Source of the DNA: Sediminihaliea albiluteola
Lineage (GTDB): Bacteria > Pseudomonadota > Gammaproteobacteria > Pseudomonadales > Halieaceae
Assembly: GCF_014077625.1 (NCBI RefSeq)
Contig: NZ_JACFXU010000013.1
Location: 372,001-436,000 of the forward strand
Length of the DNA stretch: 64,000 bases
Reading direction: 5' to 3'
Shown: positions 41,917 through 56,749 of the stretch, one piece after another
Numbering within the stretch: position 1 is the first letter of the stretch
Layout of the letters: each line of letters starts with the position of its first letter
Program-made: the position numbers and the translations under genes
The notes under the pieces: model-generated
The model's input: only the letters and a program-made list of their open reading frames with translations
The model's database searches: none
What the model was told of the DNA's origin: nothing

Positions 41917-42891
41917 ATGGAAGACTTATCTCCTTCGGATCTAAAAAGCATCCTTCACTCTAAGCGAGCCAATATTTACTACCTTCAATATTGTCGGGTG
42001 CTTGTCAATGGTGGGCGTGTTGAATACGTAACTGACGAAGCTCGTCGAGCTTTGTATTGGAATATCCCCATAGCTAACACTACAACTTTGCTACTAGGCA
42101 CTGGTACATCGATCACCCAAGCAGCTATGCGTGAGCTTGCTAAAGCTGGTGTATTGGTAGGGTTTTGTGGTGGCGGTGGTACGCCTTTATTTAGCGCGAA
42201 TGAAGTTGATGTTGAAATAGCGTGGCTGAGCCCGCAAAGTGAGTATCGGCCCACTGAATACTTGCAGCAGTGGGTTAAGTTTTGGTTTGACGATGCTCTA
42301 CGTTTAGAAGCCGCGAAGATGATGCAACAGGCACGGCTTGATTTTATCGAAAAACATTGGTTTTCAAATCGTCATTTAAAAGAGAATGGTTTTATCATTG
42401 AGCCTAATCAGCTTAAGCCTTTATTAGATGACTCTCGCTCAGCAATCGACACTCGACCAGATACCATGTCTTTGCTTACAGAAGAAGCCCGTCTAACTAA
42501 GCTTCTTTATAAGATTGCTGCGAATGTTTTGGAATATGGCGATTTTACCCGTGCGAAACGCGGTTCTGGTGTTGATCCTGCAAACCGATTTCTAGATCAT
42601 GGTAATTACCTCGCATATGGGATGGGAGCTACAGCAACTTGGGTTATAGGTTTGCCTCATGGCTTGGCTGTTTTACATGGTAAAACGCGGCGTGGCGGTT
42701 TGGTTTTTGATGTTGCTGATTTGGTAAAAGATGCTTTAGTTTTACCACAAGCTTTCATTTCTGCGGCTAGAGGCGATGAAGATCAAGTATTTCGTCAAAG
42801 CTGTATAGATAACTTAACTCGTGCAGAAGCTCTCGATTATATGATCAAAACGGTTCAAGACGTTGCTGCGCATTTAGGTGGCAATAAATGA
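41917..42891 (+). CDS. cas1: Cas1 integrase, type I-F
   Basis: 324 aa. The metal-binding active site is intact at E190 (in TEEARLTK), H254 (GLAVLHGKT) and D268 (VFDVADL); as I recall, these fall at the same residue numbers as in P. aeruginosa type I-F Cas1. It inserts new spacers together with Cas2-3. The stop overlaps the cas2-3 start by 4 bases. Codon use is AT-richer than in the flanking genes, consistent with horizontal acquisition. Confidence 0.96.
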   Translation: MEDLSPSDLKSILHSKRANIYYLQYCRVLVNGGRVEYVTDEARRALYWNIPIANTTTLLLGTGTSITQAAMRELAKAGVLVGFCGGGGTPLFSANEVDVEIAWLSPQSEYRPTEYLQQWVKFWFDDALRLEAAKMMQQARLDFIEKHWFSNRHLKENGFIIEPNQLKPLLDDSRSAIDTRPDTMSLLTEEARLTKLLYKIAANVLEYGDFTRAKRGSGVDPANRFLDHGNYLAYGMGATATWVIGLPHGLAVLHGKTRRGGLVFDVADLVKDALVLPQAFISAARGDEDQVFRQSCIDNLTRAEALDYMIKTVQDVAAHLGGNK

Positions 42892-45800
42892 ATATCTTAT
42901 TGGTGTCTGAGTGCAATAGAGCCGCTTTAAAAGAAACACGGCGAATTTTAGATCAGTTTGCCGAAAGGCGCGGTGAGCGTACTTGGCAAACATCCATCAC
43001 TAATGATGGGCTTAAAACCTTAAGGCGAATGCTGCGCAAAACCGCGCGCAAAAACACCGCGGTAGCCTGCCATTGGATACGCGGCCTTGATCACAGTGAG
43101 TTACTATGGGTTGTAGGTAATAGTCACCGTTTTAATACGGAAGGTGCAGTACCGACCAATACAACTGAGCGTGATATTCTTCGCTTAGCCGATGAAAACG
43201 GCTGGCACACAGGTGAGGCAATTTATCTATTCAGTGCTTTTGCTGCGTTGCTACATGACCTTGGTAAATCTTGCGATGCTTTTCAAGCTCGTTTAGCAGG
43301 TAAAGTACACCATGAAGGCCCAAATTTGTATCGCCATGAGTGGGTTTCTTTACGCTTATTTCAAGCATTTGTTGGCTTAGATGATGATGCAACCTGGTTG
43401 CAGCGTGTTGTTGATTTAGGTGAAGGCAAAGATAGTGAATGGCTAGGTGGATTGCAGCGAGATGGCTTGGATAGAGATACTGATAAGCCATTTAGTAGCT
43501 TGCCACCTTTAGCTGCTGCATTGGCTTGGTTGGTCGTTACTCATCACCGCTTGCCGACTAAGCCAGAAGATCAACAAGCCGTTAGGGCTGATAAGTTTGA
43601 GTATTATTTTCAACAGATTAATGCACGGTGGAATCAAGATTGTATGGATTCTGACCATGAGCTGATAAAACCTTATTGGACCTTTAGTAATGGCTTACCA
43701 ACCAGTAACCCAGTGTGGCAAAAAAGAGCAGCTCGCATAGCAGCTCGATTGCTGAAATTACAAAGTAGTGTTAGAGCTCAAGCATGGCTGGATAATCTCT
43801 ATGTCATGCATTTGTCGCGTTTAAGCTTAATGCTAGCAGATCATCACTATTCTAGTTTGACTGAAAAGTCACAGCGGATTACTCATAAGACGACTACAAA
43901 ACTTTATGCAAATACTGACCGAAAAACAGGAAAATACAATCAGACATTAGAAGAGCACCTGATTGGTGTTGCTATTAATGCGGGCTATGTTAGCCATAGC
44001 TTGCCAGATTTAGAGCGCTCTTTGCCCACTTTAAAAAACCATAGGGGTTTACGTAAGCGTAGTACTTTAGCTCGTTTCCGTTGGCAAGATAAAGCTAGTG
44101 ATTTAGCCACTTCCTTGCGCGAACGCAGCGCTAAACACGGCGCTTTTATCGTCAATATGGCTTCAACAGGTTGCGGTAAAACTCTAGCCAATGCTCGAAT
44201 TATGTATGCCTTAGCCGAACCCAGCCAGGGTGCACGCTTTTCTGTCGCTTTAGGATTAAGAACTCTGACTTTGCAAACAGGGCAAGCCTACCGAAATCAT
44301 AAAATGTACCTCGATGAGGATCAACTAGCCGTTAGAGTGGGCGGTTCAGCAAGTCGCGATCTGTTCGAATATTATCAACAGGAAGCAGTAAAGCACGGTT
44401 CTGAGTCGATACAAGATCTCATTGATGAAGATGGTGGGGTACTTTATGAAGGCGATTATGATGCACACCCTTTATTAGCTCGTACGCTACATAAACAAGA
44501 TATTAAATCCTTAGTTTCTGCACCTGTGCTGGTTTGTACGGTAGATCACTTAACCCCAGCTACTGAAAGTAAGCGGGGTGGGCGTCAAATTGCACCTATG
44601 CTGCGATTGATGACTAGTGATCTGGTTCTAGATGAGATAGATGACTATGGTTTAGAAGATTTGCCTGCGCTAGCGCGTCTAGTCCATTGGGCAGGTTTAT
44701 TAGGCTCACGGGTCATGTTGTCCTCCGCAACACTACCGCCAGCTTTAGTGCAGGGATTATACGATGCTTATCGAGCAGGGCGTGAGCAACATCAAGCGAA
44801 TCGTGGAGAACCACACACTCCAATTGATATTTGTTGTGCTTGGATAGATGAGCTCCGCAGTGTTGCTAAAGATTGCCCAAGTAGCGGTCAATTTAAAACG
44901 GCTCACCTAGAGTTTGCTCAGAAACGCGCTAAAAAGCTGGCAGCAGAAGTTAAGCAGAAAAATGTGAGGCGGGTGGCTGAATTAGTAGCAGTTCAGTGTA
45001 ATAGCAACAAAAAAGAAGAGGTTTATCGTTCTTTTTCAGAGCAGATGCTTAAAAGCGCCTTAACGTTGCATCAAATAAACCACACTGTTGATGATAAGAC
45101 AAAAAAGCAGGTAAGCTTTGGTTTAATACGCATGGCCAATATTACTCCGTTAATTGAGATTGCACGGCTGCTTTTTAAATCTAAAGTCCCAACTGATACG
45201 CAGGTTCACCTTGCTGTTTATCACTCGCAATTTCCGCTGTTAATGCGCTCAGCAATAGAGCATGAGCTAGACACAACGCTTAATCGTGATCAGCCTCAGA
45301 CGGTATTTTCACTGCCGCGCATCCACAAGCTATTAAAAGAATCTAGGCAGCAAAACCATATTTTTATTGTTCTAGGGTCGCCTGTCACAGAAGTTGGTCG
45401 TGACCATGATTATGATTGGGCAGTGGTAGAGCCTTCATCGATGCGTTCACTTATTCAGTTGGTCGGCCGTGTTAGACGTCACCGACCAGAGCCCTACTTA
45501 GAAGTTAATGTTCATTTGCTACGACGTAACGTGCGCTCTTATATAACACCACAAAAAGCTGCCTTTTTAAGGCCGGGCTTTGAAAATGATGAAGAGCAAC
45601 TGGATAGCAAAGATTTGGCTGATATATTGGAGCAGCATGAGTGGGAAATTATTGATTCACGTCCACGGATTTTGGAGAGTGTAGAGTTAAAACCTAAACA
45701 GAGCTTAGTTGATATTGAGCATTATCAGTTACAGAAAAAAATGTTACCGAAGCAAGTACGTACTGGTTCACCACGCCGTCGAGCAAGTCACTCTGAAAAC

Positions 45801-46232
45801 AAGCCCCCTCCGCTTGGTGCGCATAGTTGGTGGACAGCCCCCTACGCCACCTTGCTAGCTGTTTTACAGAGTGAGCAACCTTTCCGAAAGGATGATGGTC
45901 GGCAGGCAGATCTCGTACTGCTACCCAATGATGAAGAAGATGATTTTCTGTTGCATAGAATTGATAAGGAAAGAGGCGTCTATAAAAACATTTACACGCT
46001 CATTGAAGAGTCTATGTTGCAGCGGTTGCCTGACAGTGAGCTGCAGGGCGAGCGCATAAGCCCTTGGTTTTCAGAGGATTATTTAAGCTTGTTGATTAAC
46101 CAAGCCGAGAATGAAGGGTTGGAACTTGATCGCTGTGCTAAAAAGTATGGTGTTTTGAGCTTGAACACAGTTCGAAAAGGTAATCAAGTATGGGGTTTTC
46201 ATGCTGCATTAGGTTTTTTCCAGGCGACATGA
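42888..46232 (+). CDS. cas3: Cas2-3 fusion nuclease-helicase, type I-F
   Basis: 1114 aa, the hallmark type I-F fusion. A Cas2-like domain occupies residues ~1-90. The HD nuclease has H123-D124 (LLHDLGKSC) and later HHRLP. The helicase has Walker A near K431 (STGCGKTLA), DEAH-like LDEIDDYG near 582, SSATLPP and the motif QLVGRVRRHRP near 858. Cas2 pairs with Cas1 for adaptation, and the HD-helicase degrades targeted DNA. No frameshift or lost motif is seen. Confidence 0.96.
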   Translation: MNILLVSECNRAALKETRRILDQFAERRGERTWQTSITNDGLKTLRRMLRKTARKNTAVACHWIRGLDHSELLWVVGNSHRFNTEGAVPTNTTERDILRLADENGWHTGEAIYLFSAFAALLHDLGKSCDAFQARLAGKVHHEGPNLYRHEWVSLRLFQAFVGLDDDATWLQRVVDLGEGKDSEWLGGLQRDGLDRDTDKPFSSLPPLAAALAWLVVTHHRLPTKPEDQQAVRADKFEYYFQQINARWNQDCMDSDHELIKPYWTFSNGLPTSNPVWQKRAARIAARLLKLQSSVRAQAWLDNLYVMHLSRLSLMLADHHYSSLTEKSQRITHKTTTKLYANTDRKTGKYNQTLEEHLIGVAINAGYVSHSLPDLERSLPTLKNHRGLRKRSTLARFRWQDKASDLATSLRERSAKHGAFIVNMASTGCGKTLANARIMYALAEPSQGARFSVALGLRTLTLQTGQAYRNHKMYLDEDQLAVRVGGSASRDLFEYYQQEAVKHGSESIQDLIDEDGGVLYEGDYDAHPLLARTLHKQDIKSLVSAPVLVCTVDHLTPATESKRGGRQIAPMLRLMTSDLVLDEIDDYGLEDLPALARLVHWAGLLGSRVMLSSATLPPALVQGLYDAYRAGREQHQANRGEPHTPIDICCAWIDELRSVAKDCPSSGQFKTAHLEFAQKRAKKLAAEVKQKNVRRVAELVAVQCNSNKKEEVYRSFSEQMLKSALTLHQINHTVDDKTKKQVSFGLIRMANITPLIEIARLLFKSKVPTDTQVHLAVYHSQFPLLMRSAIEHELDTTLNRDQPQTVFSLPRIHKLLKESRQQNHIFIVLGSPVTEVGRDHDYDWAVVEPSSMRSLIQLVGRVRRHRPEPYLEVNVHLLRRNVRSYITPQKAAFLRPGFENDEEQLDSKDLADILEQHEWEIIDSRPRILESVELKPKQSLVDIEHYQLQKKMLPKQVRTGSPRRRASHSENKPPPLGAHSWWTAPYATLLAVLQSEQPFRKDDGRQADLVLLPNDEEDDFLLHRIDKERGVYKNIYTLIEESMLQRLPDSELQGERISPWFSEDYLSLLINQAENEGLELDRCAKKYGVLSLNTVRKGNQVWGFHAALGFFQAT

Positions 46233-46248
46233 AATCCCCTAGTAGCTG

Positions 46249-46321
46249 CTGCCTACGCGGCAGTGAAATGCTTATAAAAGCGAAGCGCTAATATTTCTGA
46301 GCTGCTTATTCAGCAGGCGTC
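46249..46321 (-). ncRNA. Degenerate two-repeat mini-CRISPR, candidate cas-regulating RNA (CreR-like)
   Basis: Reading the minus strand, pseudo-repeat 1 (46321-46294) matches the array repeat at 21 of 28 bases. It keeps the whole 8-nt crRNA handle CTCAGAAA and the stem-loop, with one C-G pair replaced by T-A. A 25-nt spacer (46293-46269) follows, then pseudo-repeat 2 (46268-46241), whose Csy4 stem-loop at 46263-46249 differs from the array only by one loop base while its downstream handle has decayed. Csy4 processing would give a 53-nt RNA (8+25+20). A -10-like TAAAAT lies at 46328-46323, about 7 nt before the first stem, with a weak TTGAGG at 46353-46348. Confidence 0.72.
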
Positions 46322-46370
46322 CATTTTAGCAAAGTTTATTCCAGCTTCCTCAATCCTTATATTAATAATA

Positions 46371-46397
46371 GTTAATATTAAGCTAAGCGTTAATAGG
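46371..46397 (-). promoter_or_regulatory. Candidate target site of the mini-CRISPR RNA, upstream of csy1
   Basis: On the minus strand, CC (46397-46396) is the canonical type I-F PAM. It is followed by a protospacer that matches the mini-CRISPR spacer at positions 1-5, 7-11 and 13-16. The only mismatches in the first 16 are positions 6 and 12. The site abuts a -35-like TTGATT (46398-46403), so a bound Csy complex would block csy1 transcription. Confidence 0.65.
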
Positions 46398-46425
46398 TTG
46401 ATTAATGCTTTAGGCGGGCTAAGAT
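46398..46425 (+). promoter_or_regulatory. Candidate csy1 promoter
   Basis: TTGATT (46398-46403) and TAAGAT (46420-46425) are separated by 16 nt. A short dyad AAGGCA-GG-TGCCTT (46441-46454) lies in the presumed 5' leader, and GGAGGG (46461-46466) is the ribosome site for csy1. The match to consensus is moderate. Confidence 0.4.
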
Positions 46426-46470: not shown

Positions 46471-47826
46471 ATGTCATCACCAGAGTTAACCAGTAGAGCT
46501 AATACACTACGTCGATTGATTTACGAGTACATAGATGAGCAATTCCAAGAGAAAGTTAAGAGTTTAGAAGTCGGTACTGATGCATATATAAAGCAGCAAG
46601 AAAAATATCAGCCCAATAATTGGTTGGCTGAAACAATGAAAAGAATTGCTGGTATTCAGGTCGTTACGCATCCTTTTAGGATGACAAACTCACAAGTTAA
46701 TATACGTCACGCAAGTAGTTTTTACTGTAACCCTGATGAGTTGTTAGAGCAGAATTACGTGACAAGTCATGTATTGAAAAATGGTTACTTGGATGACCTC
46801 ACAGGTAATGCCGCATCTTTCCCAGCCTACACATTTCTACAGCTCGAACATGAGGGACAAACACTCCTGCAAATGGCTGTGAGAAAGGACCAGGATCTGA
46901 TTTCTGCTTTACATGAAGATAAAGAGTTAGCAGCCTTATGGGTAAAAGATATATCAGAAATTTATCTTCCGAGAACAGAAAGTGTCGCTTCACATACATC
47001 AGGCAAGCAAATTTTCTGGAACAACGGGGAAGACCCGTACGATAATGATAACTATATTTTATTGGCCCCTCTTTATTCGAGCTCGTTGTCATATGAGTTG
47101 TATAAAAAAATAAGCCACGATCGCTACAGTGAAGAAGCTGTTAAGGCTAGGGAAGCTGCTAGAGCAAATAAAATACATGATGGCGTTGCTAGAGATTACC
47201 GAAACTTAGCTGTTCTCAAATTGGGAGGATCCAATACACAAAACGTATCTCGACTAAATAACTTAATGGGTGGCCAGAATTATTTATTGCCCTCTTTACC
47301 ACCCAGTTGGAAGTCTAGAAATCAGCGTCCACCGCTAAAAGTCTCATCAATCTTTTCGTTATTTGAAAAGCGCCGTGATACCAAGCAATGGCTAGACGAG
47401 TTGAAAGAGTTTTTATCTAATCAACCCCCCGCAAATAAACACACCCGCAATAAAGTTGACCTCTTAGTTAGTGGCTTACTTGATGAGCTGTATATTTTTG
47501 TCACTGCTTTTCAAGAGTTACCCGCAGGTTGGAGCAAGGATGAGTTATGCGATTTGTCAAGCGCTCAGTGTTATTGGTTAGACCCAGCTCGAGGATTAGA
47601 AGATGAAGAGTTTGCTGAGTCTTGGCTTAATAGTGATTGGGATGTGACTGTAGAGCACGACTTTGCCCGCTGGTTAAATCATCAACTAGGCAGCAAAGTG
47701 AAGCATTTAGGGGATGTTGAGTTCCGTCGCTGGGCCCGTGAGATGCGCAAAGACAGTTACTGGCAGCGTTTTATTAGCGGAAGTTTGAAGGCATTGCAGA
47801 AACAACACGTACGGAGGGAAGGCTAA
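46471..47826 (+). CDS. csy1: Csy1 (Cas8f), large subunit of the type I-F complex
   Basis: 451 aa. It begins with a helical domain (YIDEQFQEKVKSLE) and includes VTHPFRMTNSQVNIRHASSFYC and LGGSNTQNVSRLNNLMGGQNYLLPSLPPSW, which are characteristic of Csy1. It binds the crRNA 5' handle with Csy2 and reads the PAM. The stop overlaps the csy2 start by one base. GGAGGG precedes the ATG. Confidence 0.94.
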   Translation: MSSPELTSRANTLRRLIYEYIDEQFQEKVKSLEVGTDAYIKQQEKYQPNNWLAETMKRIAGIQVVTHPFRMTNSQVNIRHASSFYCNPDELLEQNYVTSHVLKNGYLDDLTGNAASFPAYTFLQLEHEGQTLLQMAVRKDQDLISALHEDKELAALWVKDISEIYLPRTESVASHTSGKQIFWNNGEDPYDNDNYILLAPLYSSSLSYELYKKISHDRYSEEAVKAREAARANKIHDGVARDYRNLAVLKLGGSNTQNVSRLNNLMGGQNYLLPSLPPSWKSRNQRPPLKVSSIFSLFEKRRDTKQWLDELKEFLSNQPPANKHTRNKVDLLVSGLLDELYIFVTAFQELPAGWSKDELCDLSSAQCYWLDPARGLEDEEFAESWLNSDWDVTVEHDFARWLNHQLGSKVKHLGDVEFRRWAREMRKDSYWQRFISGSLKALQKQHVRREG

Positions 47827-48785
47827 TGGAACTAGAACATAATGCTTACTTGGTCTTGCCTCGTTTACATGTGCAGAACTTAAATACTATTTCTAGCCCT
47901 ATGACCTGGGGTGCGCCTGCAATCACTGCTGCCATGGGCTTTATGCTGGCGTTACAGAGAAAAGTTCCTTTTGATTGGGAGCTGGATTTACTGACAGTCG
48001 GCATGGTTATTCATGACTTTGAGCCGCAGGTTAATGGAGGTTTCGTTAAAAAGTTTAGCTTAACCCGCAATCCCTTAGGTAAGGATGGTAAAACGCCAGG
48101 TATTATCGAGGAAGGGCGCGCCCATGCCACCATCAGTTTAGTTTTTGGTGTTTATGTGGCAGGAGACACAAGCGATGAGCTTTTGCAGGAACGTGCTAGG
48201 ACTATCTATAAAGAAGCCAGCGCCATGCGATTTGCTGGCGGATCAATTATTTATAGTTCAAACACTTGGTATAAACCGCAGATTCTTATGCTGCCTGAAG
48301 ACCAAGCTGAAACGCAGCATACCTTAGCTCTTAAACGCAGTTTGTTGCCAGGTTTTGCACTGATTAGCCGCGATGATGTTTTAGTGTCCCATACAAAAAA
48401 ACTCCAGGAGGAAGAACCAGAGTTAACTGCACTTGATGCATGGCTTGATTTATCCCGCATCAATAAACGTTGCGTGGTCACTCGAATTGAACAACCAAGC
48501 GGTGAAATTAAAGAGACTGTCGGCTGGCAGTCAGACCGTGAAAAGGGCAGTGGCTGGCTTGTCCCCATCCCTGTCGGTTACAGCGCTTTATCCGAGCTTT
48601 ACAAAGCAGGTGAAGTACAAAATGCTCGAGATCCTCACATTCCGTTCCGGTTTGTAGAAAGTATGTACTCCATTGGCGAATGGTGTAGCCCACACCGCTT
48701 ATCATCATTAAATGAGCTTTTGTGGTCCTCTCATGCCGACCATGAGGCAGGTATTTACCGCTGTATTAACCATAATTCAAATTAA
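47826..48785 (+). CDS. csy2: Csy2 (Cas5f)
   Basis: 319 aa RAMP-family protein with LVLPRLHVQNLNTISSPMTWGAPAITAAMGF, the typical Csy2 N terminus. It caps the crRNA 5' handle with Csy1. It is coupled to csy1 by a one-base overlap (TAATG), and csy3 begins 25 nt downstream behind AAGGAG. Confidence 0.94.
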   Translation: MELEHNAYLVLPRLHVQNLNTISSPMTWGAPAITAAMGFMLALQRKVPFDWELDLLTVGMVIHDFEPQVNGGFVKKFSLTRNPLGKDGKTPGIIEEGRAHATISLVFGVYVAGDTSDELLQERARTIYKEASAMRFAGGSIIYSSNTWYKPQILMLPEDQAETQHTLALKRSLLPGFALISRDDVLVSHTKKLQEEEPELTALDAWLDLSRINKRCVVTRIEQPSGEIKETVGWQSDREKGSGWLVPIPVGYSALSELYKAGEVQNARDPHIPFRFVESMYSIGEWCSPHRLSSLNELLWSSHADHEAGIYRCINHNSN

Positions 48786-48810: not shown

Positions 48811-49839
48811 ATGACTAAAAATACTTTGAAAACAGCATCGGTATTGGCGTTTGAACGAAAAATTGACCCATCTGATGCTTTGTTATTCTCCGGAAATTGG
48901 TCTGAACGTGATTCTTCTTCGAGTTGGACACCAATTGCAGTGCGTGAAAAATCAGTAAGAGGGACAATTTCTAATCGATTAAAAGCTAAGGATCAAGATC
49001 CAACTAAGGTTGATGCGGCAATAGAAAGTCCTAACTTGCAGACAGTTGATATAGCGACACTAGATAGCGAGCACGATACATTGCAAGTTCGCTTTACTTT
49101 GCGAGTACTGCCGGGAACTGGCACACCCTCTGCTTGCAATAATGCTGACTACCAAGAGAAACTTGCCGAAACTGTGAATCAGTATGTACAGGCCAATGGA
49201 TTTACTGAGTTGGCCAGACGTTATTCAGCTAACCTAGCGAGTGGTCGTTTTTTGTGGCGCAATCGCATCGGTTCTGAGCAGGTCGAAGTCAGTATTGCAC
49301 ATTTAGTCGATGGCAAAGCGGCTGCAGTCTACACGTTTAATAGCTTAGATTTCTCCCTGCGTAATTTTGACCACTCAACAGAAGGTTTAGAGCAATTAAG
49401 CCATGTGATATCTAATGGCTTATTAGGCAAAGAGCATGTTTTACTCCAGGTAACTGCATTTGCCCGAGTAGGAGCTGGACAAGAAGTATTTCCTTCGCAA
49501 GAGCTTATTTTAGATCGTGGTCGTGGTGATAAAAGTAAAACTCTTTACAGAGTAAATGGTGTCGCTGCCATGCATTCGCAGAAAATAGGCAACGCGATTC
49601 GCACCATTGATACCTGGTACCCAGTCGAGGATGACGTCATAGATTTAGGACCGATTGCTGTTGAGCCTTATGGCTCGGTGACAACTCAGGGTAAAGCCTA
49701 TCGTCAGCCAAAGCAGAAAATGGACTTTTACAACCTACTCGATAATTGGTTGCTTAAGGATCAAGTACCAGCCTTAGAGCAGCAGCACTATGTCATGGCG
49801 ATATTAGTACGTGGTGGTGTGTTTGGTGATGCGGGTTAA
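48811..49839 (+). CDS. csy3: Csy3 (Cas7f), backbone subunit
   Basis: 342 aa. Six copies polymerise along the spacer in a normal type I-F complex. Family motifs include SVLAFERKIDPSDALLFSGNW, SGRFLWRNRIG and EPYGSVTTQGKAYRQPK. Every sixth spacer base is flipped out between Csy3 subunits, which matters for the mini-CRISPR target described elsewhere. csy4 follows 4 nt after the stop. Confidence 0.95.
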   Translation: MTKNTLKTASVLAFERKIDPSDALLFSGNWSERDSSSSWTPIAVREKSVRGTISNRLKAKDQDPTKVDAAIESPNLQTVDIATLDSEHDTLQVRFTLRVLPGTGTPSACNNADYQEKLAETVNQYVQANGFTELARRYSANLASGRFLWRNRIGSEQVEVSIAHLVDGKAAAVYTFNSLDFSLRNFDHSTEGLEQLSHVISNGLLGKEHVLLQVTAFARVGAGQEVFPSQELILDRGRGDKSKTLYRVNGVAAMHSQKIGNAIRTIDTWYPVEDDVIDLGPIAVEPYGSVTTQGKAYRQPKQKMDFYNLLDNWLLKDQVPALEQQHYVMAILVRGGVFGDAG

Positions 49840-49843
49840 TGCT

Positions 49844-50407
49844 ATGGATTATTATCTAGATATTAAACTATTGCCCGATCCTGATTTTATTCCTAGCATG
49901 CTCATGAATGCGTTGTTTAGTAAATTGCACCGAGTGCTGGTAGAGCGGAGGGAGCTTAACGTAGCAGTCAGTTTTCCTGAGTATAGCCTAAACCCTTTGG
50001 GCTTGGGGAATTGCTTGCGCTTATACGGTAAGCAAGGTGATTTGGATAGCTTACAAGACACAGGCTGGTTAACAGGTATGCGAGACCATGTGGTTTATCG
50101 TGATGTGCAGCCCGTACCTAGTAACACTGAGTATGTAGAAGTACGACGAGTGCAAGCTAGGTCAAACGTTGAACGTCTAGTTCGACGGAGCGCAAAGCGC
50201 AAGGGTATTAGTGAAGAACAAGCTCGGGAAGCCTATCAAAATGCACAACCAAAAATGTTACGTTTGCCCTTTATAAGCCTTAACAGTCAAAGTAGTGGCC
50301 GGAGATTCTCTTTGTTTATAGAGCAAGGAAGGCCGCAAAAAGAGTCGAAAGCAGGCGAGTTTAATCGTTATGGAATAAGCCAAACCGCGACTGTTCCTTG
50401 GTTTTGA
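49844..50407 (+). CDS. csy4: Csy4 (Cas6f) crRNA endoribonuclease
   Basis: 187 aa, the same length as P. aeruginosa Csy4 and clearly similar (MDYYLDIKLLPDPDF, terminal VPWF). It has the catalytic His29 (SKLHRVL), the Ser/Thr region LNSQSSGRRF, and the arginine-rich helix VQARSNVERLVRRSAKRK that grips the repeat hairpin. ATG at 49844 is chosen because it gives the conserved N terminus; open codons before it overlap csy3. It cuts each repeat 3' of the stem. Confidence 0.96.
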   Translation: MDYYLDIKLLPDPDFIPSMLMNALFSKLHRVLVERRELNVAVSFPEYSLNPLGLGNCLRLYGKQGDLDSLQDTGWLTGMRDHVVYRDVQPVPSNTEYVEVRRVQARSNVERLVRRSAKRKGISEEQAREAYQNAQPKMLRLPFISLNSQSSGRRFSLFIEQGRPQKESKAGEFNRYGISQTATVPWF

Positions 50408-50535: not shown

Positions 50536-53500
50536 GTTCACTGCCGCATAGGCAGCTCAGAAAATCAATCCAGTTTTACGCATAAAGCAGAGCATGTTCA
50601 CTGCCGCATAGGCAGCTCAGAAATTTCGGAGCCTGTCATTTTCGCTGGCCATGCCGTTCACTGCCGCATAGGCAGCTCAGAAACTATCGGCAATGTGGCC
50701 CGTAAAGCGCTTAAAGTTCACTGCCGCATAGGCAGCTCAGAAAACTCTGCTATGTCCTGCAACGCCTTTCGGAGCGTTCACTGCCGCATAGGCAGCTCAG
50801 AAAATGCGCAGATTGCTGGCAATGTCGCTAGCGCTGTTCACTGCCGCATAGGCAGCTCAGAAATAGCTTGATATGCGACCACAGCAGAAGGCCGAGTTCA
50901 CTGCCGCATAGGCAGCTCAGAAAGAATACGTCTATGTTCCTGTCGAAGTTGAGGTGTTCACTGCCGCATAGGCAGCTCAGAAACGGCAGTGCTTCCCCCC
51001 TCGTGCATGTCATTAAGTTCACTGCCGCATAGGCAGCTCAGAAATCCGGTTTATTTGTTGTCGTGAATAGGCTCCTGTTCACTGCCGCATAGGCAGCTCA
51101 GAAAACTGCCTTGTTAGCTAGCGCCCGCATCCACGCGTTCACTGCCGCATAGGCAGCTCAGAAATCCGGTTTATTGGTTGTCATGTCTGGGCTCCAGTTC
51201 ACTGCCGCATAGGCAGCTCAGAAAAAGCGTCTATTTCATCACTGAAGCTCACGCTGTTCACTGCCGCATAGGCAGCTCAGAAAAGCACTCAGGCCAAGCT
51301 CAGCTATGGCGTCTTGTTCACTGCCGCATAGGCAGCTCAGAAAGAGGAATCCGCCTGCTAGTGTGCTGCCGATACGTTCACTGCCGCATAGGCAGCTCAG
51401 AAAGTTCAGCATCCTTACGCAGCTTCTCGCACTCGGTTCACTGCCGCATAGGCAGCTCAGAAATTACATCACGGACGATGAAGCGCTACAGGTCGGTTCA
51501 CTGCCGCATAGGCAGCTCAGAAAGCTTTGTTTTTGCTGATACAGGGAACGAACATGTTCACTGCCGCATAGGCAGCTCAGAAAATACTGACCGCTCTAGG
51601 GCGCTTAGAGACGTGGTTCACTGCCGCATAGGCAGCTCAGAAATCCTAGTGTCGCTCAGCACTTCCACTTCCTGCGTTCACTGCCGCATAGGCAGCTCAG
51701 AAAATGCGGATACCGGGCAAAAGTCAGTGATACACGTTCACTGCCGCATAGGCAGCTCAGAAACAAACCCGCTGCAATGTGTTTCCAGTAAATACGTTCA
51801 CTGCCGCATAGGCAGCTCAGAAAAACAACAAAAGAATATATAGCCATTTACGAAAGTTCACTGCCGCATAGGCAGCTCAGAAAAGCTTGAAGAGTGTTTC
51901 AAGCTCGTCCATGCTGTTCACTGCCGCATAGGCAGCTCAGAAATATTAGTCTTACTCGCCCTTGGGCTGTTTCTTGTTCACTGCCGCATAGGCAGCTCAG
52001 AAACTACGTTGTTGACGAACCATGGGAGTGCAGGGGTTCACTGCCGCATAGGCAGCTCAGAAAATGTTGCCGTTGGCGGTAAACTCAGCATGATGGTTCA
52101 CTGCCGCATAGGCAGCTCAGAAAAAGTGTTGCACGCTCGGCCATTCTCGCGTGGCGTTCACTGCCGCATAGGCAGCTCAGAAATAACTAGGTCATCGACT
52201 GTTATTTCATGCCGCGTTCACTGCCGCATAGGCAGCTCAGAAACTTCTTGCTTGCACTACAGGTACTCAGGGAGCAGTTCACTGCCGCATAGGCAGCTCA
52301 GAAATAGCCTCTCGTGAGACCGCGCAGCGCCATACAGTTCACTGCCGCATAGGCAGCTCAGAAAAATACGGCATTAACAAGCGGTGCCGAAGGGTCGTTC
52401 ACTGCCGCATAGGCAGCTCAGAAAATCTGCACTGAGTTACCAAACTCTAAATTATTGTTCACTGCCGCATAGGCAGCTCAGAAAAAAGAAGCTAATCAAG
52501 TCTTGCAGGCTGATATGTTCACTGCCGCATAGGCAGCTCAGAAACTTTAGCTGAATGTGCTTGTCGGTGATGTTGAAGTTCACTGCCGCATAGGCAGCTC
52601 AGAAAATTGGCATTACTGATTCACAACTGTCATTACCGTTCACTGCCGCATAGGCAGCTCAGAAAATCTGAAACTCGCACTATTTGCGCAGTGTTGCGTT
52701 CACTGCCGCATAGGCAGCTCAGAAATGAGCGCGTCTTGATCAGATTAATAGGGCTAGGTTCACTGCCGCATAGGCAGCTCAGAAAACTGCACGATATGTC
52801 GCGGCGAAGCGGTCACGGTTCACTGCCGCATAGGCAGCTCAGAAACTGTGATAGATCAGATTGTTGGCGCTATGGATGTTCACTGCCGCATAGGCAGCTC
52901 AGAAAAACCTCATCAACAGTGAGGATGATGTGGCGATGTTCACTGCCGCATAGGCAGCTCAGAAAGTGAAGCTGAGACGGATTGTGTTAGTGCAATAGTT
53001 CACTGCCGCATAGGCAGCTCAGAAAGATGCGGGAACGTCGCGGCCATCTGAAACTCGCGTTCACTGCCGCATAGGCAGCTCAGAAAAAGGTCTTTGATGG
53101 GCTGGCGCGGCACATTGAGTTCACTGCCGCATAGGCAGCTCAGAAACCCTCGATAATTGCCTTCAGCTCGGCATCACTGTTCACTGCCGCATAGGCAGCT
53201 CAGAAAACTACAGCGAACCCATGTTGTAGACTCATTCTGTTCACTGCCGCATAGGCAGCTCAGAAACTGAAAGGCACCGATCAACAGTTGACGGGGTTGT
53301 TCACTGCCGCATAGGCAGCTCAGAAATACATGGGACCCCGAAGGACAGTACCGTCGCAGTTCACTGCCGCATAGGCAGCTCAGAAAAGTAGCTGGTCTAT
53401 TTCCTCCAGCGCCTTACCGTTCACTGCCGCATAGGCAGCTCAGAAAAATGACCACCTTCCAGGCGGGCTAATCGAGCAGTTCACTGCCGCATAGGCAGCT

Positions 53501-56500
53501 CAGAAAGACTCGCAAGGGTTTATGGGTAGAGAGCGTCAGTTCACTGCCGCATAGGCAGCTCAGAAACAAAACACACGCGGGCATCGTATAAGCGTCTGGT
53601 TCACTGCCGCATAGGCAGCTCAGAAAAAGCTTCAACATGCTTGCACTGCTTGGTGATGGTTCACTGCCGCATAGGCAGCTCAGAAATCACATTGTCTTTT
53701 CGCCCCTAATGCTTGCTTGTTCACTGCCGCATAGGCAGCTCAGAAAAGATGATGAGGGGCATGTTGTTACGGTATCGCGTTCACTGCCGCATAGGCAGCT
53801 CAGAAAATCACCGCAAACAGCATGGCACTGAATGCCACGTTCACTGCCGCATAGGCAGCTCAGAAAGCGGCTGATCGAGGACGTGCCTTCGGTCACTAGT
53901 TCACTGCCGCATAGGCAGCTCAGAAAAAGGTCTGGCCTAGCTGTTCAGTATGGCATCAGTTCACTGCCGCATAGGCAGCTCAGAAAGTAACACAAGGGGC
54001 TTAAATGCTAAGCGACATGTTCACTGCCGCATAGGCAGCTCAGAAACACGCAGATACGGCACAGGAATGCCGGACTATGTTCACTGCCGCATAGGCAGCT
54101 CAGAAATCTATAAACTTGCTGCTCTTTAACCATTTACGGTTCACTGCCGCATAGGCAGCTCAGAAAAACACCCCCGCATGTTCAAATTACGCATTACAGT
54201 TCACTGCCGCATAGGCAGCTCAGAAAACAGGATACGGCGTGCTAGCTAATGGCTTGCTGTTCACTGCCGCATAGGCAGCTCAGAAAAACGCACAAGCCTA
54301 CAGCCGAGCAGCGCGCGCGTTCACTGCCGCATAGGCAGCTCAGAAATAGCTGGGTCGACACAGGTTTTGATATTGACAGTTCACTGCCGCATAGGCAGCT
54401 CAGAAATTCCCGTTCATGATGATGTCTTGGAAGAAGTCGTTCACTGCCGCATAGGCAGCTCAGAAATCATGTAATCAATCTGAGCGCGCTTTTTACGCGT
54501 TCACTGCCGCATAGGCAGCTCAGAAAAGCCACCGCTATTTCTCATTGAGCGCTTGAGTGTTCACTGCCGCATAGGCAGCTCAGAAAAGCAGATGATTACA
54601 CAGTAGCAATACCGACTCGTTCACTGCCGCATAGGCAGCTCAGAAATCAATTAGTGCCGCAGCGTCGCGCCCCGCGAGGTTCACTGCCGCATAGGCAGCT
54701 CAGAAAGCGAGCTGATGATTTGCGGGACTTTCGTCCTGGTTCACTGCCGCATAGGCAGCTCAGAAAGACAGGGTCTTCCAATCCCGCAGGGCTAGTGCGT
54801 TCACTGCCGCATAGGCAGCTCAGAAAGTACATTAGATGCTCTCTGCCAAGAGCTGGTCGTTCACTGCCGCATAGGCAGCTCAGAAACCCTTCTTCGCGTT
54901 GTTCCAAATCGCCTCATGGTTCACTGCCGCATAGGCAGCTCAGAAATTGGGACAACCTGCGTGATGGTGCTATGGGCGGTTCACTGCCGCATAGGCAGCT
55001 CAGAAAATTAGTAACAAGCTCAGGCCCAAGCTCAAACAGTTCACTGCCGCATAGGCAGCTCAGAAAGCTCACGATCACCCACCGGGCCGAGCACATGAGT
55101 TCACTGCCGCATAGGCAGCTCAGAAATGCAGTCAATCTCACGCTGACCACCACAGGCTGTTCACTGCCGCATAGGCAGCTCAGAAACTGTCGGGGAATCA
55201 GTTGCTTTGAAAGAATCAGGTTCACTGCCGCATAGGCAGCTCAGAAACAGATATCAAGTCTACATCGAAGAAAAACCATGTTCACTGCCGCATAGGCAGC
55301 TCAGAAAGCGAGCTGCTGCGTGAACCCTTGGTAGGTCTTGTTCACTGCCGCATAGGCAGCTCAGAAACTGTGCTTAGCCTAATCCTCGCCTATGCCTTCG
55401 TTCACTGCCGCATAGGCAGCTCAGAAAATTGCTTCGTCATCGGTGATGTACGCGCTAGCGTTCACTGCCGCATAGGCAGCTCAGAAATTAGGGCGCGCGG
55501 CGACCGGTACGGGGACTTCGTTCACTGCCGCATAGGCAGCTCAGAAACTAAGTAGTAAAAACTTAGGGACAAACACCCCGTTCACTGCCGCATAGGCAGC
55601 TCAGAAAATCAAGACCAAACATTTCCTTAAAGTGGACAAGGTTCACTGCCGCATAGGCAGCTCAGAAAAAGCTAGATCAGTTTATGTGGATACAGCTTAA
55701 GTTCACTGCCGCATAGGCAGCTCAGAAATTTCCGCGAAGCTTGAGCAGCCCTTCAGCTTCGTTCACTGCCGCATAGGCAGCTCAGAAAGTCCGGTAGGTT
55801 AACCTTCTGCCACAGTAGAGGTTCACTGCCGCATAGGCAGCTCAGAAAATTATAAGACCATTGAATCAACATGCGAGTTTGTTCACTGCCGCATAGGCAG
55901 CTCAGAAAAGACCTAATGTCGGGTATCAGCGGAACTACTCGTTCACTGCCGCATAGGCAGCTCAGAAATAACATCGTTCTCAGTTAGTTTTACCGTCATA
56001 GTTCACTGCCGCATAGGCAGCTCAGAAACACACTTTAGACTTAACAGATGCTTTTGTACCGTTCACTGCCGCATAGGCAGCTCAGAAATTCAAAGAGGCA
56101 GGGCTTACTATGTACTGTATGTTCACTGCCGCATAGGCAGCTCAGAAACTCACTTGTCCGAAAGGTCGGGAGCAAGGGTTGTTCACTGCCGCATAGGCAG
56201 CTCAGAAAAAACCTAGCGACATCAACACCGATAACGATTGGTTCACTGCCGCATAGGCAGCTCAGAAATCTACGCCGTCATCAAACTCTACTGCCATTTC
56301 TGTTCACTGCCGCATAGGCAGCTCAGAAATCAAGCTTGAACTCAATTTCTGATCTGAACTGGTTCACTGCCGCATAGGCAGCTCAGAAATATAATAGTTG
56401 CTAACGACAAATATATTCTCGGTTCACTGCCGCATAGGCAGCTCAGAAAAGTTAAAAATTGGCACATTTAATGCGGGTGACGTTCACTGCCGCATAGGCA

Positions 56501-56749
56501 GCTCAGAAACAGTGCTGGGCCGACCTTTTTTATCTTGCCCAGTTCACTGCCGCATAGGCAGCTCAGAAACTGGACTGTGACATCAAACTCCACAGCTGCG
56601 TGTTCACTGCCGCATAGGCAGCTCAGAAAGACGACCGGGACGTGTGGATTCGCGTCGGAATGTTCACTGCCGCATAGGCAGCTCAGAAAGTTTTCGGTAC
56701 TGGTCAGGTACCGTTTTCGGTGTTCACTGCCGCATAGGTAGCTCAGAAA
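50536..56749 (+). CRISPR. Type I-F CRISPR array, 104 repeats and 103 spacers
   Basis: The 28-nt repeat begins GTTCACTGCCGC and ends with the handle CTCAGAAA. Its 5-bp stem CTGCC/GGCAG with a 5-nt loop is the Csy4 substrate. I counted 104 repeats at a 60-bp period. Spacers are 32 nt apart from seven of 33 nt and one of 31 nt. All repeats read as identical except the last (56722-56749), in which one stem C is T, leaving a G-U pair. That marks the leader-distal, oldest end. The array lies directly downstream of csy4 in the same orientation. Confidence 0.98.

What the first reader, a model, noticed from the sequence alone, without database searches (positions are those of the whole stretch)
46371..46425. 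Mini-CRISPR spacer matches a CC-PAM site at the csy1 promoter, with mismatches only at flipped positions 6 and 12
The site upstream of csy1 has the CC PAM, then matches spacer positions 1-5, 7-11 and 13-16. The only two mismatches in that stretch are positions 6 and 12, which do not pair in type I R-loops. Such a partial match predicts binding without recruiting Cas2-3 for destruction. The site touches the predicted -35. The inferred circuit is autorepression: free Csy complex loaded with this RNA would shut csy1-4, and repression would lift when crRNAs are abundant or anti-CRISPR proteins block the complex.
Basis: partly seen in the sequence, partly recalled or inferred. Interest (0 to 1): 0.92.

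Follow-up and report, generated by a model that had tools for sequence, protein, structure and literature searches.

The report
CRISPR-guided self-repression of csy1 promoter
Next to its CRISPR genes this bacterium carries a tiny one-spacer CRISPR whose guide RNA partly matches the start of the csy genes and probably tells the CRISPR complex to turn down its own production; this kind of circuit is already known, and this is a clear new example of it.

Summary
A minus-strand mini-CRISPR (46241-46321) lies between cas2-3 and csy1. Its 25-nt spacer matches a CC-flanked site (46371-46397) at positions 1-5, 7-11 and 13-16, with mismatches at 6, 12 and 17-25. The PAM abuts the predicted csy1 -35. 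The site is unique in the held genome. Comparative data support function: 154 loci with csy1 gave 66 distinct mini-arrays; in 63 the best match in the cas3-csy1 region has a CC PAM. Positions 6, 12 and 18 are mismatched in most; the other positions up to 17 mostly covary with their targets. The short spacer is expected to bind without triggering Cas2-3, as published for another I-F1 system. Best reading: a type I-F1 CreR, a crRNA-like RNA that makes the Csy complex repress csy1-4. This is a known kind (CreR; I-F1 mini-arrays; I-F CreTA at the same place in Acinetobacter). Extra findings: spacer lengths cluster in 6-nt steps (about 32-6n), and 24 of the 63 have a tiny ORF with tandem identical codons behind the target, like CreT toxins, whereas here csy1 follows directly. 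I have no expression data; repression is inferred.

The parts
46294..46321 (-). psiR1, degenerate first repeat; supplies the 8-nt 5' handle CTCAGAAA
   Evidence: 21/28 identical to array repeat, 3' 12 nt intact; mostly conserved in M. insulare
46269..46293 (-). 25-nt spacer (guide) of the CreR-like RNA
46241..46268 (-). psiR2, degenerate second repeat; supplies the Cas6f hairpin
   Evidence: 20/28 identical, 18 of the first 20 nt, stem intact
46323..46331 (-). predicted extended -10 (TGCTAAAAT) of the mini-array promoter; no clear -35
   Evidence: sequence and partial conservation in M. insulare; judged by eye, consensus recalled, not experimentally shown
46371..46395 (-). target protospacer; pairing expected over 46380-46395
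46396..46397 (-). CC PAM
   Evidence: best unconstrained match has CC in 63 of 66 mini-arrays
46398..46403 (+). predicted csy1 -35 TTGATT, adjacent to the PAM
   Evidence: TTGACT in M. insulare
46420..46425 (+). predicted csy1 -10 TAAGAT
41917..42891 (+). cas1f
   Evidence: PADLOC Cas1f E=1.8e-154
42888..46232 (+). cas2-3 (I-F)
   Evidence: PADLOC Cas23f E=0
46471..47826 (+). csy1 (cas8f1), first gene behind the target promoter
   Evidence: PADLOC Cas8f E=5.7e-107
47826..48785 (+). csy2 (cas5f1)
   Evidence: PADLOC Cas5f E=1e-92
48811..49839 (+). csy3 (cas7f1)
   Evidence: PADLOC Cas7f E=3.9e-149
49811..50407 (+). csy4 (cas6f); mechanical ORF start, true start may lie further in
   Evidence: PADLOC Cas6f E=2.9e-62
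50536..56749 (+). main CRISPR array, 103 exact repeats plus one degenerate last repeat; spacers 31-33 nt

Best explanation
The element is a type I-F1 CreR (cas-regulating, crRNA-like RNA). The mini-array is transcribed divergently from csy1. Cas6f (Csy4) would cut both degenerate repeats to give an 8-nt handle, a 25-nt guide and a 20-nt hairpin. The RNA assembles a Csy complex, with about five instead of six Csy3 subunits. The complex finds the CC-flanked site directly upstream of the csy1 -35, pairs through three segments (1-5, 7-11, 13-16) with positions 6 and 12 flipped out, stays bound without activating Cas2-3, and blocks RNA polymerase at the csy1-4 promoter. Less Csy complex, or Csy complex filled with crRNAs from the main array or blocked by anti-CRISPRs, would relieve repression. 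Shown here: anatomy, uniqueness, conservation, covariation, promoter-adjacent placement. Inferred: processing, loading, repression, release.
For: Anatomy. Uniqueness and chance controls. Of 66 distinct mini-arrays, 63 have as best unconstrained match a CC-flanked site; 61 of 66 reach score 9 with CC, against 0 of 66 for reversed spacers; the mini-array finder gives hits in 71 of 154 real regions and 0 of 154 reversed regions. Position profile: 1-5 matched in 63/63 (partly by choice, since scoring starts at 1), 6 in 10/63, 12 in 13/63, 18 in 14/58, 7-11 and 13-17 in 79-98%. Covariation. Window against M. insulare: position 1 is T in guide and target of one and G in guide and target of the other; 6 and 12 differ in the guide alone, 17 in the target alone; the intergenic alignment is best conserved in the mini-array, around its -10, and in the target plus -35. 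A -35 lies within 5 nt of the PAM in 44 of 59, against 19% of 932 control GGs; TTGA within 9 nt in 31 of 59, against 43 of 932. Published mechanism: truncated I-F1 complexes bind but do not trigger Cas2/3; I-F CreA in Acinetobacter has an 8-nt handle, 20-nt guide and 20-nt 3' handle, needs Csy but not Cas1 or Cas3, is unpaired at position 6 and tolerates loss of pairing at 10, 12, 19 and 20.
Against: No RNA or reporter data. The csy1 promoter was not listed by the strict promoter scan. The predicted CreR RNA does not fold better than shuffled sequence, and its minimum-energy fold does not form the two repeat hairpins separately (z 0.28). Read-through from cas1-cas2-3 could feed csy1 and weaken repression. 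In 48 of the 63 mini-arrays with a CC target the target lies more than 110 nt from csy1, and in 24 of those 48 a tiny ORF with tandem identical codons follows it, so conservation in relatives supports guided repression in general, not csy1 repression in each. 3 of 66 mini-arrays have no CC target in the region.
Confidence: 0.86

Rival explanations
1. The module is a remnant of a CreTA toxin-antitoxin: the guide once repressed a tiny creT toxin between target and csy1; creT was lost and the guide now only incidentally sits on the csy1 promoter.
For: CreT-like tiny ORFs behind the target in 24 of the 48 mini-arrays whose target is far from csy1; the window intergenic region is 239 nt against roughly 400-540 nt in the CreTA-like relatives that I compared; CreR-like and CreTA-like labels need at least 8 changes on the Csy3 tree.
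Against: Guide and target are kept in both the window and M. insulare, with a coordinated difference at position 1 and the -35 directly behind the PAM. This rival is about origin; it does not exclude present autorepression.
Confidence: 0.25
2. The complex bound at 46371-46397 mainly regulates the mini-array itself, or both divergent promoters at once.
For: Target and mini-array promoter share one 150-bp region; in some relatives the target lies 7-31 nt from psiR1, on top of the likely mini-array promoter (for example L044, L080, L056, L072).
Against: In the window the target starts 49 nt from psiR1 and abuts the csy1 -35; a -35 next to the PAM and pointing to csy1 is the common feature (44 of 59).
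Confidence: 0.1
3. A decayed leftover of a CRISPR array whose match to the promoter is chance.
For: Both repeats are degenerate (21/28 and 20/28).
Against: Degeneration spares the parts needed in a crRNA (handle in psiR1, hairpin in psiR2); CC targets in 63 of 66 and the covariation speak against chance for the family; chance controls for the window.
Confidence: 0.02
4. A self-targeting guide that leads to Cas2-3 cleavage or primed spacer uptake at the csy1 promoter.
For: CC PAM and intact seed.
Against: 25-nt guide with pairing over 16 nt; in I-F1, R-loops shorter than 32 bp did not engage Cas2/3 (PMC7296934, passages). Guide and site persist together in two lineages.
Confidence: 0.02

Closest known systems
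CreR (Liu et al. 2023, Cell Host Microbe; paper not seen, only its description in passages of PMC12948488, PMC13131331 and PMC12737573)
   Same: mini-CRISPR, crRNA-like RNA, partial complementarity to a cas promoter, proposed response to crRNA abundance and anti-CRISPRs
   Different: those passages name I-B, I-E and V-A or type I and V-A in general; here I-F1, with a 25-nt guide in place of 32
I-F1 mini-arrays of Shmakov et al. 2023, Nucleic Acids Res 51:8150 (reference seen; text not held; content recalled)
   Same: recalled: mini-arrays of two repeat-like sequences partly complementary to cas promoters, cas8 in particular, one I-F1 case tested as a regulatory guide
   Different: could not check whether this lineage, the 6-nt length steps or the CreR/CreTA interleaving are in that paper
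CreTA of I-F systems, Acinetobacter sp. WCHA45 (PMC10097628, sections 6 and 9 read, passages elsewhere)
   Same: same cas3-csy1 place, divergent two-psiR mini-array, CC PAM, partial match with position 6 unpaired, Csy-dependent repression
   Different: there the guide represses a toxin gene with a 33-bp mini-ORF and its target lies downstream of the creT promoter; in the window no tiny ORF intervenes, the target lies upstream of the -35, and csy1 starts 74 nt after the PAM
I-B CreTA with tRNA-sequestering CreT (PMC8501985, abstract)
   Same: two degenerate repeats; a toxin ORF with two consecutive AUA codons resembles ORFs seen in relatives here
   Different: haloarchaeal host; no toxin in the window

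Membership tests
CreR (RNA-guided cas autorepression) | mini-CRISPR with two repeat-like sequences near cas genes | tested here: met
CreR (RNA-guided cas autorepression) | guide partly complementary to a PAM-flanked site in a cas promoter | tested here: met
   the promoter itself is predicted
CreR (RNA-guided cas autorepression) | RNA processed by Cas6 and loaded into the effector | not testable with these tools
   handle and hairpin sequences are kept
CreR (RNA-guided cas autorepression) | represses cas genes; relieved by crRNA competition or Acr | not testable with these tools
   needs reporter assays
CreTA (CRISPR-regulated toxin-antitoxin) | small toxin gene (SD plus tiny ORF) behind the target promoter | tested here: not met
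   rule-based search finds no SD-led tiny ORF between target promoter and csy1 in the window (sequence)
CreTA (CRISPR-regulated toxin-antitoxin) | crRNA-like guide with CC-flanked partial target in the cas3-csy1 region | tested here: met
   compare
Type I-F1 CRISPR-Cas | cas1, cas2-3 fusion, csy1-4, 28-nt repeats with I-F hairpin | tested here: met

The most novel reading that the evidence does not exclude
Type I-F1 regulatory guides obey a structural code: spacers are cut in 6-nt steps (about 32-6n) so that each guide fits a whole number of Csy3 subunits and most cannot switch on Cas2-3; the unpaired flipped positions are not simply free but carry a skewed make-up that keeps them mismatched (A in the target, G or C in the guide); and the same mini-array has switched repeatedly between guarding a toxin (CreTA) and repressing the csy operon itself (CreR), the window being a converted case.
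Probability: 0.4. Interest if true: 0.65.

Novelty: new member of a known kind. Interest (0 to 1): 0.45.

Why it matters
It is a well-supported natural case of the Csy complex acting as its own repressor, in a system whose biochemistry is known well enough to predict why it binds without cutting. The comparative set (66 mini-arrays, 63 with targets) gives simple candidate design rules for nuclease-silent I-F guides: shorten in 6-nt steps and pair up to about position 17 with positions 6 and 12 free. It also suggests how an addiction module and an expression governor could turn into each other by loss or gain of a tiny toxin gene.

Tried and rejected
Close relatives through the Csy1 protein: a genome-contig scan confirmed none, and 5 of 97 genomes matched, the own genome among them; replaced by Csy3 searches. 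Considered and rejected: chance match, decayed array, a canonical array spacer matching the same region, a second full-pattern site of the guide in the held genome. Folding of the CreR region was uninformative (z 0.28). The strict promoter scan did not list the csy1 promoter and listed one minus-strand site inside the target. At flipped positions observed matches are near the product of base frequencies (6: 0.16 against 0.18; 12: 0.21 against 0.18; 18: 0.24 against 0.29), so no avoidance of matching is seen beyond the base make-up, which itself is skewed; I could not decide why.

Rows dropped before counts: of 55 other genomes with Csy3, the 9 weakest were not fetched; of 31 new, 3 were not fetched; one search kept the best 80 of 407. 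One locus (L086) lacked csy1. Finder hits scoring above 8.5 (L042/L125, L146) were dropped before the target test and 5 duplicate pairs merged. The -35 test used the 59 of 63 targets on the minus strand. Results against: 3 of 66 mini-arrays have no CC target in the region (L063, L105, L136). Of 148 distinct loci labelled, 40 have a cas3-csy1 region of 130 nt or more without a recognised mini-array, 36 have a shorter region, and 6 could not be judged. 14 of 63 spacer lengths are not within 1 nt of 6N-4. On the tree the CreTA label is not clustered (22 changes, shuffled mean 21.6) and CreR hardly (13 against 14.5, 49 of 500 shuffles as low). A third control, the reverse-complemented spacer, gave 42 of 66 scores of 9 or more with any PAM (1 with CC); I think it re-finds the same duplex from its other end, did not test that, and used the reversed spacer as control.

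Full report
What is there. The window holds a type I-F1 system: cas1, cas2-3, csy1, csy2, csy3, csy4 and an array of 103 exact repeats plus a degenerate one, with 32-nt spacers in 94 of 102. Between cas2-3 (ends 46232) and csy1 (starts 46471) lies a minus-strand mini-CRISPR: psiR1 46294-46321, spacer 46269-46293, psiR2 46241-46268. Each degenerate repeat keeps the part a crRNA needs: the handle CTCAGAAA in psiR1, the hairpin in psiR2. The spacer is 25 nt, seven shorter than the usual array spacer.

The match. The site 46371-46395(-) with CC at 46396-46397 pairs at 1-5, 7-11 and 13-16; 6, 12 and 17-25 do not match. It is the only site of its pattern in the held 3.3 Mb and the best of 7,345 CC sites in the window (12 against 8). 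2 of 20,000 shuffled spacers do as well in the promoter region, and none of 102 canonical spacers exceeds 7 with CC. The predicted -35 (46398-46403) begins at the next base after the PAM, with a -10 at 46420-46425; the strict scan did not report this promoter.

Relatives. Csy3 was sought in the order (56 of 390 genomes), the class (33 of 369) and named genomes (best 80 of 407). 46, 28 and 80 loci were read; with the window this makes 155, of which 154 have csy1. A repeat-based finder gave hits at or below the cut-off in 71 of 154 real regions and 0 of 154 of the same regions reversed; after merging duplicates, 66 distinct mini-arrays. Without any PAM condition the best match in the cas3-csy1 region has CC in 63 of 66. 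Reversed spacers give 0 of 66 at score 9 or more with CC, real ones 61 of 66.

Pairing pattern. Over the 63, positions 1-5 match in 63 of 63 (partly a result of scoring from position 1), 6 in 10 and 12 in 13 of 63, 18 in 14 of 58, 7-11 and 13-17 in 79-98%, and positions 19-32 in 13-57%. Flipping of every sixth base in type I complexes is established (passages in PMC7305327 and PMC11127173). In 67 overlapping pairs of similar spacers, paired positions show 292 coordinated changes, 35 spacer-only, 63 target-only and 29 both-changed-unmatched; flipped positions show 1 coordinated, 66 one-sided and 20 both-changed-unmatched. Marinospirillum insulare (L115, Csy3 82% identical) is the nearest of the loci read: position 1 is G in its guide and target, T in both of the window; 6 and 12 differ in the guide alone, 17 in the target alone. 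The intergenic alignment of the two is best conserved in the mini-array, around its -10, and in the target with the -35.

Why binding without cutting. In the I-F1 system of Aggregatibacter, spacer length L = 6N-4 for N Cas7f1 subunits; complexes with truncated spacers, even by 6 nt, form R-loops but do not trigger Cas2/3 (PMC7296934, passages). In I-B, a 24-bp spacer repressed its target while interference and priming disappeared (PMC10989794, abstract). The window's 25-nt guide with pairing over 16 nt falls in that class. Across the 63, lengths cluster at 12-15, 18-22, 24-27, 31-33 and 38, with one at 29; 49 of 63 lie within 1 nt of 6N-4; the period-6 concentration is 0.50 and no jittered set of 20,000 reached it, nor in a set thinned to 43 (0.55). 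53 of 63 are shorter than 31 nt. The listings showed me no paper that reports this, but the two most relevant papers are not held, so I do not know whether it is published.

Toxin cousins. In 48 of 63 the target lies more than 110 nt before csy1, and in 24 of these a Shine-Dalgarno-led tiny ORF with tandem identical codons follows (AGA AGA most often, also ATA ATA and TTA TTA). This resembles CreT toxins (a six-codon ORF with two consecutive AUA codons in PMC8501985, abstract), and I-F CreTA is known at the same place in Acinetobacter (PMC10097628, section 6), where the guide is 20 nt, positions 6, 11 and 18 are unpaired, and repression needs Csy but not Cas1 or Cas3. In 15 of 63, the window and M. 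insulare among them, csy1 follows directly (74 and 71 nt after the PAM). On a Csy3 tree the two arrangements need at least 8 changes among 38 rows; the labels are hardly clustered, many branches are weak, and start sites were set by rule, so switching is suggestive only.

Mechanism and status. The best reading is a CreR of type I-F1: the Csy complex, guided by its own mini-array, represses csy1-4 and not cas1 and cas2-3, which lie upstream of the site. Anatomy, conservation and covariation are shown; processing, loading, repression and relief are inferred. CreR is a known kind, described for I-B, I-E and V-A (as cited in PMC13131331, passages), and an I-F1 mini-array was, from recall, tested by Shmakov et al. 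2023, which is not held here. Hence: new member of a known kind. Left open: base make-up at flipped positions (target A in 87 of 126 and guide G or C in 85 of 126 at positions 6 and 12; p 5e-13 against target positions 26-40 and 4e-7 against distal guide positions; thinned set 2e-8 and 1e-3), for which I have no tested explanation.

Noticed in passing
L047, L163, L131, L182, L057, L158, L161, L045, L162 and others, 100-165 nt after the target PAM: CreT-like tiny ORFs with tandem identical codons (AGA, ATA, AGG, TTA; TCA TCA in L181) behind the mini-array target. TTA TTA and TCA TCA may be further codon classes of CreT; I did not search for earlier reports.
   Followed up: partly
L177, 115 and 220 nt after the target PAM: Two successive tiny ORFs, each with AGA AGA, behind one target (Pokkaliibacter plantistimulans).
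   Followed up: no
63 mini-arrays: At flipped positions 6 and 12 the target is mostly A and the guide mostly G or C, beyond flanking base make-up.
   Followed up: partly
L063, L105, L136: Mini-arrays whose best match in the cas3-csy1 region has no CC PAM; they may guide to another promoter.
   Followed up: no
L049, L127, L128, L141, L143, L144, L149: Vreelandella/Halomonas-like loci with a cas3-csy1 region of the same 237-nt length but no recognised mini-array, perhaps after its loss.
   Followed up: no
window 51045-51076 and 51165-51196: Two array spacers nearly alike (units at 51017 and 51137 are 93% identical over 89 nt, repeats included), probably taken from related invaders.
   Followed up: no
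L138 and L121: Here the target ends 12-23 nt before the chosen csy1 start codon, so the complex would cover the start region rather than end at a -35.
   Followed up: no
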